A stretch of DNA of 20,676 bases from the IMG/VR virus record IMGVR_UViG_3300025106_000138, positions 1 through 20,676 of that record. The stretch is one strand, 5' to 3'. Position 1 is the first letter of the stretch. Each line of letters starts with the position of its first letter. The notes below the pieces were generated by a model. That model did no database searches, was not told the DNA's origin, and saw only the letters and a program-made list of their open reading frames with translations. Source of the stretch: a virus. The position numbers and the translations under genes are program-made. Below are positions 9,723 to 20,676 of this stretch, piece after piece.

Positions 9723-9757
9723 AAAAAAGGCACGGTGCGTTACTCACCGCCCATGCC
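9723..9757 (-). terminator. Hairpin with U-tract between tail chaperone and tape measure
   Basis: On the minus strand GGCA-(4-base bulge)-CGGTG, a 7-base loop, then CACCG-TGCC, followed at once by six T residues. The stem is 5 plus 4 base pairs with a 4-base bulge on one side. The stop codon of the -1 frame (9740-9742) lies in the loop. It looks like a weak or partial intrinsic terminator that could lower tape-measure mRNA relative to the upstream tail genes. Whether it acts in vivo is unknown. Confidence 0.4.
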
Positions 9758-9934
9758 TTTGATTTTTAAAGTTTTTATACCCTCTACATTTAGCATGTAG
9801 AGTAAATAATGATATTTTCTAAAAAGTTGATCGTCTGTTAATTGCGAAGTATCCAGCCCCGGCATGTATCGCTGTAGCATGCTTTCTGCATGAAATACAG
9901 GGTCAAATTCATGATTCTGTCCTTCGCTTAGTGC
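9740..9934 (-). CDS. -1 frame extension of the tail assembly chaperone (gpGT-type)
   Basis: This frame is open from 9943 to the stop at 9740 and has no ATG, GTG or TTG before an internal ATG 19 codons in, so it is unlikely to be an independent gene of this length. It opens 16 bases before the end of the upstream 112-residue chaperone gene, in the -1 frame. The 64 codons encode ALSEGQNHEFDPVF..., QLTDDQLFRKYHYLLYMLN..., a charged, helical sequence ending in KIKGMGGE. In lambda, P2, Mu and many other tailed phages the gene before the tape measure is extended just so by a -1 ribosomal frameshift, the longer product loading the tape measure. The proposed slip is at A_AAG (9937-9934) and would give a protein of about 175 residues. 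Confidence 0.65.
   Translation of the reverse strand, partial: ALSEGQNHEFDPVFHAESMLQRYMPGLDTSQLTDDQLFRKYHYLLYMLNVEGIKTLKIKGMGGE
9782..9802. repeat. Perfect inverted repeat, 8-bp arms
   Basis: CTCTACAT (9782-9789), a 5-base spacer, ATGTAGAG (9795-9802). It lies inside the -1 extension of the tail chaperone. There is no T-run next to it on either strand, so it is not a simple terminator. It may be an RNA hairpin in the late transcript or chance; no function is claimed. Confidence 0.6.
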
Positions 9935-10266
9935 TTTACGTATTTACTCTTTACACCATTCACAATACGCATACACTCTTCAATAACGCCCGGTACATAA
10001 TCCATGTCGGTAATCATGTCCTTTTCCCCGCCAATGAAATTGTTTTCCCAAATGGCCTCTGCAAACTTTACATTGTCGCGGCCTAAGTAGGTTAATGCCA
10101 GCGAAAAGGAGGTTCGGTCAAGTTTTTTCAAATAGCCCACTTTATCCTCTACTTGAATTTCATGCACCGTACCGTGCTGCTTTTTCCATTCGGCCATTAC
10201 TTCTTGTGATACTTGCCCAATTAGTATTGCCTTTTCGATTGTTTCGGTTGCTTTATTTGTGGTCAT
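9928..10266 (-). CDS. Tail assembly chaperone (gpG-type)
   Basis: A 112-residue protein located between tail tube and tape measure, where tailed phages encode the chaperone that coats the tape measure before tube assembly. Seen: an N-terminal helix (TIEKAILIGQVSQEVM), the segment IQVEDKVGYLKKLDRTSFSLALTYLGRDNVKFAEAIWENNFIGGE that resembles tail chaperones of Bacteroidota phages (GYLK-P-x-R then A-L then G-G-(D/E)), and a basic C-terminus ending KSKYVKH. The presence of a start-less -1 frame overlapping its last codons strongly supports the chaperone role. It is 26 bases after the tube gene. No membrane segment or cysteine-rich site is seen apart from one Cys. Confidence 0.75.
   Translation of the reverse strand: MTTNKATETIEKAILIGQVSQEVMAEWKKQHGTVHEIQVEDKVGYLKKLDRTSFSLALTYLGRDNVKFAEAIWENNFIGGEKDMITDMDYVPGVIEECMRIVNGVKSKYVKH
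9934..9937 (-). promoter_or_regulatory. Proposed -1 frameshift site A_AAG
   Basis: The codons before the chaperone stop are GTA AAG CAC TAA. A slip of the Lys codon AAG to AAA (A_AAG) moves the ribosome to the open -1 frame. The heptamer C_GTA_AAG shares its second half with lambda G_GGA_AAG, but its first half does not allow good re-pairing of the P-site tRNA, so slipping would be inefficient or single-tRNA. The site lies inside the only window (9928-9943) where both frames are open. Confidence 0.45.
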
Positions 10267-18466: not shown

Positions 18467-19837
18467 ATGCCAAAAGATAGTTCATCCGCCCAATTATCCA
18501 AACAAATAACAGCACCTGTAACCAAAGCACCGGAACAAACCAACCAACCATTGATAGTTAACAAAATGGTGCTGCTATCGCCAGACAGAACACCTAAAGA
18601 TGTTGGAACGTGGAGAGATAGCCACCGTGCTGCAGAAAGCATTTATTATCCCAATCGGTCAAGAATTTATGACCTCTACAAAGATGTTGAGCTAGATGGG
18701 CATTTAAGTGGCATAGTGGAAAAGCGCATAAAAACGATTTTAAATAAAAAAATCCGTTTTGTAAAAGATGGTAAAACCGTAGAAGATGTTTGCGATCTTA
18801 CAGAAACCATTGAGTTTAGCAATTTGTGCAAAGAAATTTTATGGAGTATTTTTTGGGGCATATCAGGTTTTGAGTTTATACCCGGCGAACAATTTGATTT
18901 TAAAGTCATTCCGCGCAAGCACATAAAACCTGAAAAAAAAGTACTCACAGTTAACCAAACAGACTACGATGGCACTTCATACGAAGGCGTGCAAAATATA
19001 TGGGTGGTAGGCGAAGAGCGAGATTTGGGCTTGTATCTTAAATGCTCCTTTTATGTGATGCTCAAAAAAGGAAACTTTAGCGATTGGGCAAACTATATTG
19101 AAATATTTGGGCAGCCATTAGTTGTTACGCGTTACGATGCCTATGACGAAAAAACGAAAGTACAGCTAAACAACGCTATGGAGTCTATCGGGTCGTCCAT
19201 GCGTTTGAGTATTCCAAAACAGGCCGAAATTGATGTACTAGATGGCAAAACAAGCAATGGCAATGGCGACCTCCAAAATAAATTTAAAGATGCTTGTAAC
19301 GAAGAACTTTCAGTTATCGTGGTAGGTAATACCGAAACAACCAAAAGCAGCAGCAGCAGTGGTTATGCTCAAAGCAATACGCATAGCGACCAACAGGATG
19401 AAATTATCAAAAGCGACATCAAGTTTCTTTTAAACCTCTTAAATAGCAATCATTTTAAAGCTATCTTAAAAAGCTACGGTTACAGTACCGATGGCAAATT
19501 TACTATTGAAGAGTTGATGAAACCGGCTGCACAAAAACTACGTGCCGAAACTATCAAAACTTTAAAAGATATTGGACTGCCCATTAAGCACGAACAATTG
19601 TACGAAGAGTTTGGATTAGAAAAGCCAGACGATTACGATGCGCAAATGGCTCAGTCACAAAAAGAAGAGGAAGAACAAGAGCAAGAACCAACTGCTAACA
19701 ATAATGACTTGCCAACCGGTACATCCAAGCCAAAAACCAAAACAAAAGCCAAACAGCAAAAGCAGCCTACGCTATCGGTAATGGATAGGTTTTTTGCAAC
19801 TTTATCCGATTTTTTCGACCAAGCCCACAAGGATTAA
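18467..19837 (+). CDS. Portal protein, DUF935 (Mu gp29-like)
   Basis: A 456-residue protein forming the dodecameric ring at one vertex through which DNA enters. Seen: WRDSHRAAESIYYPNRSRIYDLYKDVELDGHLSG (in segments), then IVEKRIKTILNKKIRFV, the clip/stem part with FEFIPGEQFDFKVIPRKHIKPE, GNFSDWANYIEIFGQPLVVTRYDAYDE, and the C-terminal FTIEELMKPAAQKLRAETIKTLKDIGLPI; all are in DUF935 order. The last about 65 residues are a charged, Gln/Glu/Lys-rich linker (EEEEQEQEP, KPKTKTKAKQQKQ) and a short helix MDRFFATLSDFFDQAHKD. The final codons carry a slippery heptamer (19810-19816) leading into the -1 frame of the minor head protein, so two products are predicted: a 456-residue portal and a longer fusion. 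Confidence 0.88.
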   Translation: MPKDSSSAQLSKQITAPVTKAPEQTNQPLIVNKMVLLSPDRTPKDVGTWRDSHRAAESIYYPNRSRIYDLYKDVELDGHLSGIVEKRIKTILNKKIRFVKDGKTVEDVCDLTETIEFSNLCKEILWSIFWGISGFEFIPGEQFDFKVIPRKHIKPEKKVLTVNQTDYDGTSYEGVQNIWVVGEERDLGLYLKCSFYVMLKKGNFSDWANYIEIFGQPLVVTRYDAYDEKTKVQLNNAMESIGSSMRLSIPKQAEIDVLDGKTSNGNGDLQNKFKDACNEELSVIVVGNTETTKSSSSSGYAQSNTHSDQQDEIIKSDIKFLLNLLNSNHFKAILKSYGYSTDGKFTIEELMKPAAQKLRAETIKTLKDIGLPIKHEQLYEEFGLEKPDDYDAQMAQSQKEEEEQEQEPTANNNDLPTGTSKPKTKTKAKQQKQPTLSVMDRFFATLSDFFDQAHKD

Positions 19838-19857
19838 AGCAACACCTTAGTGGGCTT
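19810..19857 (+). promoter_or_regulatory. Programmed -1 frameshift signal: slippery heptamer plus stem-loop
   Basis: T_TTT_TTC at 19810-19816 is in correct phase with the portal frame (GAT TTT TTC). After a 4-base spacer, AAGCCCAC-AAGG (19821-19832) pairs with CCTT-(A)-GTGGGCTT (19845-19857), a 12-bp stem with one bulged A. The portal stop codon (19835-19837) is in the loop. The loop GCAA (19839-19842) can pair with TTGC at 19864-19867, giving a possible pseudoknot. No T-run follows, so it is not an intrinsic terminator. This is the standard architecture of a -1 frameshift element. Confidence 0.65.
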
Positions 19858-20676
19858 GCCGGTTTGCCATACGCACAGTTAAAACAAGAATTAAACAGCG
19901 GTTATCAACACCTTATTTGTGGCCATAGTCACAACTTGCCCTACACAATGCAAGCTGATGACAATAGCGAGCTCATGTCTATTGCCGAGGAAATGGCAAA
20001 AGATATTTACTCGCGCAAAAAAATGGTAGATAAGCTGCCCGATGAATTAATAAGTGGTTATGCCGCAAAATTGCTCAATGCCATTACTATAGGCTATGGC
20101 ATGCCTTCAACCAAAGAGGATGAAGGCATGTTACATGCACTACGCAATAATGTGTATCATTTTAGTGCGGCCAAAGGCTATACACAGGCCAAAAGCTTAA
20201 CAGAAGCATTATTAGACGAAAATGGGAAACTCCGTACTTGGAGCCAGTTTAAAGCTGTAGCACTAACTATTAATAACGAGCAAGTAAACCAATGGTTAGC
20301 AGCCGAGTATCAAAATGCTATTGCTGCAAGCCAAATGGCACGTAAATGGCAAGAAATCATCCAACACAAAGCCATACTGCCATTCTTAAAGTACGTAACT
20401 GCTCACGATGGGCGCGTGCGTCCTGCTCATGCGGCAATGGATGGCATTACATTACCGGTTGACCATCCTTTTTGGAAAACCTATTTTCCACCTAATGGTT
20501 GGGGATGCCGTTGCTTAATTATTCAACTAGCTCATGCTGTTGTAACCAAGGACACCGATATTTATTTTCCTACCGATAAAGAAGTGCCTAAAATGTTCCG
20601 CTTTAATCCCGGAATAGAACAACAGGTATTTAGTAAAGAACATGCTTACTTTAAAGATTTGCCAGCCGGATTAGAA
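19816..20676 (+). CDS. Minor head protein, Mu gpF/SPP1 gp7-like, partial; -1 frame of portal
   Basis: An open frame of 287 codons from the slip site to the window end, cut off at the right edge. The central and C-terminal part is clear: DDNSELMSIAEEMAKDIY, LLNAITIGYG, VYHFSAAKGYTQAKSL, EYQNAIAASQMARKW, then TAHDGRVRPAHAAMDG, DHPFWKTYFPPNGWGCRC, which is the H-x-x-D-G and P-P-N-G-W-x-C-R-C signature of the Phage_Mu_F family. These proteins bind the portal and help head assembly and DNA ejection. The frame is open from 19789, but its first ATG is only at 19948, inside the conserved-looking region (CGHSHNLPYTMQADD), with TTG codons at 19864 and 19936 as other possible starts. A portal fusion by frameshift is the favoured reading, giving at least 737 residues. 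Confidence 0.85.

What the first reader, a model, noticed from the sequence alone, without database searches (positions are those of the whole stretch)
19810..19857. Predicted portal-minor head protein fusion by programmed -1 frameshifting
Seen directly: a phased T_TTT_TTC heptamer six codons before the portal stop, a 4-base spacer, a 12-bp stem with one bulge, a stop codon inside the loop, and a possible loop-downstream pairing GCAA/TTGC. Exactly here the -1 frame carries the Mu gpF-like protein, which has no ATG until 19948. Known: X_XXY_YYZ heptamers with downstream structures drive -1 frameshifting in phages and viruses, mostly for tail chaperones; gpF/gp7-type proteins bind portals in a few copies per head. 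Inferred: a fraction of portal subunits carries a covalently attached minor head protein, which would fix its number and its place in the head. I do not know of a described portal-gpF frameshift fusion.
Basis: partly seen in the sequence, partly recalled or inferred. Interest (0 to 1): 0.78.

Follow-up and report, generated by a model that had tools for sequence, protein, structure and literature searches.

The report
Frameshift signal fusing portal to cargo
Mu-like viruses of Bacteroidota bacteria carry a conserved RNA signal that should make some ribosomes slip back one base at the end of the portal gene, so that part of the portal protein is made with a second head protein (often a toxin-like cargo) attached; this has to my knowledge not been described.

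Summary
In the window the portal ORF (18467-19837) ends with an in-phase T_TTT_TTC (19810-19816) followed by a stable hairpin, and the Mu F-like (MuF) ORF lies exactly in the -1 frame without an ATG until 19948. The same signal (T_TTT_TTC or T_TTT_TTT, usually 6 nt, then a GCCC.../...GGGC hairpin) sits at the same junction in 100 of 108 portal+MuF loci fetched (75 split, 25 single-ORF fusions). The stem covaries, and 21,647 other portal codons hold no such phased heptamer. A scan of 2.9 million viral contigs for the RNA motif alone, blind to proteins, gave 80 loci: 79 are portal/MuF junctions. The wiring goes both ways. In most loci the 0 frame gives portal and -1 gives portal-MuF; in the fusions the 0 frame gives portal-MuF and -1 stops 17-38 codons on, giving portal alone. 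The tree needs at least six switches between the two. Many MuF parts end in toxin-like domains. Best reading: programmed -1 frameshifting makes two portal forms, bare and MuF-tethered. No experiment was available; co-assembly in one ring is inferred.

The parts
18467..19837 (+). portal ORF (0 frame product, 456 aa), Portal_Mu/DUF935
19810..19816 (+). slippery heptamer T_TTT_TTC, in phase with the portal frame
   Evidence: conserved in 57 non-redundant junctions, 0 phased copies in 21,647 other portal codons
19817..19822 (+). 6-nt spacer to the conserved stem (the full stem in this window intrudes from 19820)
19820..19858 (+). stimulatory hairpin; conserved core GCCCAC 19823-19828 pairs with GTGGGC 19850-19855; 13 bp in all with one bulge
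   Evidence: covariation
19835..19837 (+). 0-frame stop codon TAA of the portal, inside the hairpin loop
19789..20676 (+). MuF (-1) open frame, runs off the window; after the slip it reads from CGA 19816 (RPSPQGLKQHLSGLAGLPYAQL...)
   Evidence: Phage_Mu_F match; probable continuation in L005 (100% identical 123-nt overlap) adds 131 aa with an LPD3 domain
19864..19866 (+). first NTG (TTG) in the MuF frame, the rival start; first ATG is at 19948-19950

Best explanation
A programmed -1 ribosomal frameshift at T_TTT_TTC, stimulated by the hairpin about 6 nt downstream, lets part of the ribosomes leave the portal frame at portal residue 450 and continue into MuF. One mRNA then gives two proteins with the same N-terminus: bare portal (456 aa) and a portal-MuF fusion (about 868 aa if L005 is the continuation). 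The slip site lies in a disordered linker after the finished portal fold. Relatives that are single-ORF fusions keep the signal, and there the slip makes the bare portal. Shown by comparison: the signal, its phase, its covariation, its near-exclusiveness to this junction, both wirings, and coding selection in the -1 frame before any start codon. Inferred: that slippage happens and how often; that both forms join one dodecameric ring, so that MuF and its cargo domain sit inside the head at a fixed place in limited number and may be delivered with the DNA.
For: Heptamer and hairpin in 100 of 108 portal+MuF loci. No phased T6[C/T] in 21,647 other portal codons; the codon before TTT TTC ends in T in all cases although it encodes D, S, N, R, G, L or A. 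Stem pairs 5 and 6 change type together: 100% paired vs 86% in shuffles, covariation 0.326 vs 0.065, 0 of 500. Blind motif scan: 79 of 80 loci at portal/MuF, 75 of 76 with a portal match in phase. Single-ORF fusions with the signal, -1 stop 17-38 codons on; at least 6 fused/split switches on the tree. In 23 of 66 non-redundant -1 loci no ATG/GTG/TTG lies within 60 nt after the portal stop (48 of 66 lack an ATG there), and in the pre-start stretch substitutions fall 54/37/107 on codon positions 1/2/3 of the -1 frame. Outgroups with conventional MuF starts (D3112, martha, Mushu, SuMu, fF4, pippi8-1, FPSV-S1) and the portal-only relatives checked have no signal. U_UUU_UUC is in the high-efficiency class H_HH.U_UU.Y in E. 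coli (PMC4066793) and is the predicted site in SPP1 17.5 (PMC6316719). AlphaFold places F423-F424 of a fused relative in a low-confidence linker 371-445.
Against: No frameshift product, peptide, band or ribosome profile was available. Some loci (hankyphage, ATG 4 nt before the portal stop; the window, TTG 29 nt after the start of the stop codon) could also start MuF independently. Two fused loci (L164, L168) keep the stem but have CTTTTTC out of phase, and L034 has lost the signal, so bare portal may not always be needed. Relatives are not independent, so counts overstate independent evidence.
Confidence: 0.92

Rival explanations
1. MuF is translated independently, by re-initiation after the portal stop or from a GTG/TTG/ATG start; heptamer and hairpin are incidental or help coupling.
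For: The window has TTG 19864 shortly after the stop; hankyphage-type loci have an ATG overlapping the portal stop.
Against: 23 of 66 -1 loci have no NTG within 60 nt after the stop, three have no ATG at all in the stretch scanned. The stretch before any start evolves as coding in the -1 frame. Single-ORF fusions, which need no second start, keep the same heptamer and stem.
Confidence: 0.05
2. The signal acts at transcription: slippage of RNA polymerase on T6 gives a mixed mRNA.
For: A T-run is at the centre, and a few loci have T7 or A-runs of 7-10.
Against: Six T followed by C is short for slippage; the covarying hairpin at fixed spacing and the strict codon phase are hallmarks of ribosomal slippage.
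Confidence: 0.03
3. Sequencing or assembly indel, or a broken gene, in the T-run of the window.
For: The window is a metagenome fragment; L044 has a T-run one base shorter and a different frame.
Against: The same -1 arrangement occurs in dozens of unrelated contigs, in isolate genomes (Chryseobacterium, Epilithonimonas, Flavobacterium, Nubsella) and in sequenced phages (TCUEAP3, hankyphage p00, BKO1-TP4).
Confidence: 0.01
4. The FFxxAP peptide is kept for a protein function and the DNA pattern follows from it.
For: FFxxA is invariant in the otherwise unalignable linker of fused proteins.
Against: The third base of the preceding, variable codon is T in all (log10 p about -48 under independence); 53 of 57 use TTT TTC; the 3' arm is read differently in the different loci and covaries with the 5' arm.
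Confidence: 0.03

Closest known systems
Tail assembly chaperone -1 frameshift (lambda G/GT and analogues)
   Same: -1 slip near the 3' end of a phage morphogenesis gene gives a minority C-terminal extension; SPP1 17.5 even uses UUUUUUC (PMC6316719)
   Different: Those are tail chaperones absent from the virion (PMC5009743); here the gene is the portal, the extension is a minor head protein and the products should be virion parts
Capsid and tail-tube protein frameshifts (phage A2, PSA, SPP1 17.1/17.1*)
   Same: Recoding gives two forms of a structural protein that share an N-terminus
   Different: Other proteins and other signals; the extension is not a MuF protein, and no inverted wiring is known to me
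dnaX-type frameshift
   Same: In the single-ORF phages the slip shortens the product; heptamer plus hairpin
   Different: Cellular polymerase gene; the phage junction exists in both wirings
Portal-MuF-PBECR single-ORF fusions (PMC5512222; PHROG 35074) and MuF polymorphic toxins (PMC5576092)
   Same: Same domains; the fused ORFs found here are members
   Different: The frameshift signal, the bare-portal product, and the split loci with MuF in -1 are not mentioned there
SPP1 gp6 portal and gp7
   Same: A MuF-type protein bound to the portal in one to three copies per head (PMC5576092, PMC4493119)
   Different: There the binding is non-covalent between separate gene products

Membership tests
Programmed -1 ribosomal frameshifting signal | X_XXY_YYZ heptamer in phase with the 0 frame | tested here: met
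   T_TTT_TTC at 19810, phase checked
Programmed -1 ribosomal frameshifting signal | stimulatory structure at about 5-9 nt | tested here: met
   5' arm of the conserved stem 6 nt after the heptamer, z -4.6
Programmed -1 ribosomal frameshifting signal | evolutionary conservation with covariation | tested here: met
Programmed -1 ribosomal frameshifting signal | measured trans-frame product | not testable with these tools
   no proteomics or reporter data; hankyphage mass spectrometry exists (PMC12135933, S6 Table) but its file could not be read
Mu-type portal (PF06074) | profile match over the family | tested here: met
   E 8.7e-66, profile 1-336 of 336
Phage_Mu_F (PF04233) | profile match | tested here: met
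   E 1.3e-13
Tail assembly chaperone G/GT frameshift | located between tail tube and tape measure genes | tested here: not met
   the site lies at the portal/MuF junction, after the terminase and adaptor-like ORFs
MuF polymorphic toxin | variable C-terminal toxin domain after MuF | tested here: inconclusive
   the window ends inside MuF; the probable continuation L005 has LPD3. In relatives PBECR2 30, CdiA_C 8, PBECR3 8, LPD3 5, Gln_amidase 3 of 76 (categories overlap)

The most novel reading that the evidence does not exclude
A recoding element specific to portal/MuF junctions of Bacteroidota Mu-like phages keeps a mixture of bare and MuF-tethered portal subunits in the same ring, so that a few enzymatic cargo domains are covalently anchored at the portal vertex inside the head; the mixture itself is selected, because it is kept when the wiring is inverted.
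Probability: 0.65. Interest if true: 0.85.

Novelty: new variant of a known kind. Interest (0 to 1): 0.8.

Why it matters
It would add the portal, the twelve-fold ring that starts head assembly and passes the DNA, to the proteins made in two forms by frameshifting, and explain how a ring can carry only some minor head proteins and effectors. It also means that many database MuF proteins are truncated or mis-started: the Elizabethkingia phage TCUEAP3 record starts MuF 278 nt after the portal stop, inside conserved sequence. It makes the old question of MuF copy number and place in the head directly testable with existing phages.

Tried and rejected
The pseudoknot GCAA/TTGC is not conserved. Terminator reading: on neither strand does a T-run follow the stem. 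The +1 relation in L044 has a T-run one base shorter and is taken as an indel; L008 (FPSV-S1) is a Winoviridae phage with an ordinary ATG start and no signal. An alignment of seven diverse portals was too loose for the genome scan; a closer one worked. In a phylum sample (395 genomes) strict thresholds gave six hits, three of which are portal/MuF; the rest look like chance, so prevalence in genomes is not estimated. The AlphaFold model of a fused relative is of modest confidence (mean pLDDT 66), so no fold search was made.

Full report
The observation. The window's last 2.2 kb hold a Mu-type portal ORF (18467-19837, PF06074) and, in its -1 frame, a Mu F-like ORF (PF04233) that runs off the window. 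Six codons before the portal stop stands T_TTT_TTC in phase; a hairpin of 13 bp with one bulge follows, z -4.6 against shuffles. TTTTTTC as such is not rare here (11 found, 11 expected), so the case rests on phase, place, structure and relatives.

Relatives. Portal relatives were fetched from IMG/VR, GTDB genomes and phage records. L002 (60% identical portal) has nearly the same 28-nt stretch from heptamer to stop, with a compensatory stem change, GCCCAC/GTGGGC to GCCCGC/GCGGGC. Of 108 loci with portal and MuF, 74 have MuF in -1 with the T6 heptamer, 25 are single-ORF fusions with it, one (L157) is a locus with a broken-looking MuF frame that keeps the heptamer, and eight lack it. Of these eight, L060 and L007 have A-runs (A_AAA_AAG or longer) at the junction and MuF in -1, and L012 has A-runs in a fusion; A-runs are common in the lysine-rich linker, so this is weak. 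L164 and L168 keep the stem only; L034 has neither; L044 has a shorter T-run; L008 has an ordinary start.

Not chance. In 57 non-redundant junctions the heptamer is T6C (53) or T7 (4), while 21,647 other portal codons of the same genes hold none in phase. The codon before is GAT, AGT, TCT, AAT, CGT, GGT, CTT or GCT: amino acids differ, the third base T does not. The stem's 5' arm usually starts 6 nt after the heptamer; the first four pairs are nearly fixed (GCCC/GGGC), and pairs 5 and 6, which were not used for anchoring, pair in 42/44 and 43/44 with four to five pair types. On the model-fitted alignment 100% of cells pair against 86% in shuffles, and the covariation score is 0.326 against 0.065; slid versions fall to 0.06 or less. 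That alignment leans to the structure, so one search is the cleaner test.

Blind test. Of 80 loci, 79 match portal and/or MuF around the motif, 75 of 76 with a portal match are in phase, and of 74 with both genes 50 are -1 and 24 fused; one locus is unrelated. A few contigs had been seen before. Covariance model R1 hit 71 junctions and one other place in 718 kb.

Two wirings. In split loci the 0 frame ends 3-16 codons after the heptamer and -1 runs on for about 200-550 codons. In the fusions the 0 frame runs on and -1 meets a stop after 17-38 codons. On a portal tree the fused/split label needs at least six changes: for example, L163 is -1 inside a fused clade. So the signal outlives the switch, which is best explained if both products are wanted. 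If one signal serves both wirings, its efficiency may be substantial, as in dnaX; this is inference.

MuF is not simply started anew. In 23 of 66 non-redundant -1 loci no NTG codon lies within 60 nt after the portal stop, and 48 lack an ATG there. Between the stop and the first possible start, substitutions between relatives fall 54/37/107 on codon positions 1/2/3 of the -1 frame. In window and L002 this stretch reads RPSPQGLKQHLSGLAG and RPSPQGLKNYLSGLPG.

Controls. Mu-like phages D3112, martha, Mushu and SuMu, the Winoviridae fF4, pippi8-1 and FPSV-S1, and Salinibacter phage M8CC-19 lack the signal. So do the portal-only relatives of Bacteroidota chromosomes that were searched, which have no MuF match nearby.

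Cargo. Of 76 MuF parts, 73 match Phage_Mu_F; 30 match PBECR2, 8 CdiA_C, 8 PBECR3, 5 LPD3 and 3 Gln_amidase (overlapping counts). The probable continuation of the window's MuF (L005, identical over a 123-nt overlap) carries LPD3. The window's closest relative L002 has no recognised cargo, so tethering MuF itself matters too.

Literature. SPP1 gp7 binds the portal in few copies (PMC5576092, PMC4493119); portal-MuF-PBECR fusions are described as architectures (PMC5512222); MuF toxins are described (PMC5576092). None mentions frameshifting at this junction, nor do papers on hankyphage, P. gingivalis phages, Peternella, fF4 or the recoding review as held. The library holds open-access papers only, and no supplementary file could be read.

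Limits. There is no experiment; relatives are not independent; E-values of the custom model are rough; the AlphaFold model is of modest quality.

Noticed in passing
window 9740-10266, minus strand: The 112-aa ORF before the tape measure gene (9928-10266) is followed in its -1 frame by a stretch IRKALSEGQNHEFDPVFHAESMLQRY..., the layout of a tail chaperone G/GT frameshift, without an obvious classical heptamer.
   Followed up: partly
L104-L162 (many), e.g. L129 and L136: A group of 59 portal relatives without a MuF match nearby; many lie in Chitinophagaceae-type chromosomes and end after about 370 aa, and the two loci read lie near a UDP-glucose-epimerase-like gene; perhaps a domesticated or headless element.
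   Followed up: partly
L010 3463-3741: In Elizabethkingia phage TCUEAP3 the annotated MuF starts 278 nt after the portal stop, leaving out conserved MuF sequence that the -1 frame encodes.
   Followed up: yes
L164, L168: Fused loci of Pedobacter and Sphingobacterium keep the GCCCCG hairpin but have CTTTTTC out of phase; a +1 slip on CTT would stop soon after FF.
   Followed up: partly
L085 171-205, minus strand: A second full match of the signal (31.5 bits) lies in an unrelated-looking ORF (..AIKNFFVDAPSSGGAEF..); chance or another recoding site.
   Followed up: partly
MuF C-termini in A9 members: Toxin-like domains after MuF vary widely (PBECR2, PBECR3, CdiA_C, Gln_amidase, LPD3, Hint) across the set.
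   Followed up: partly
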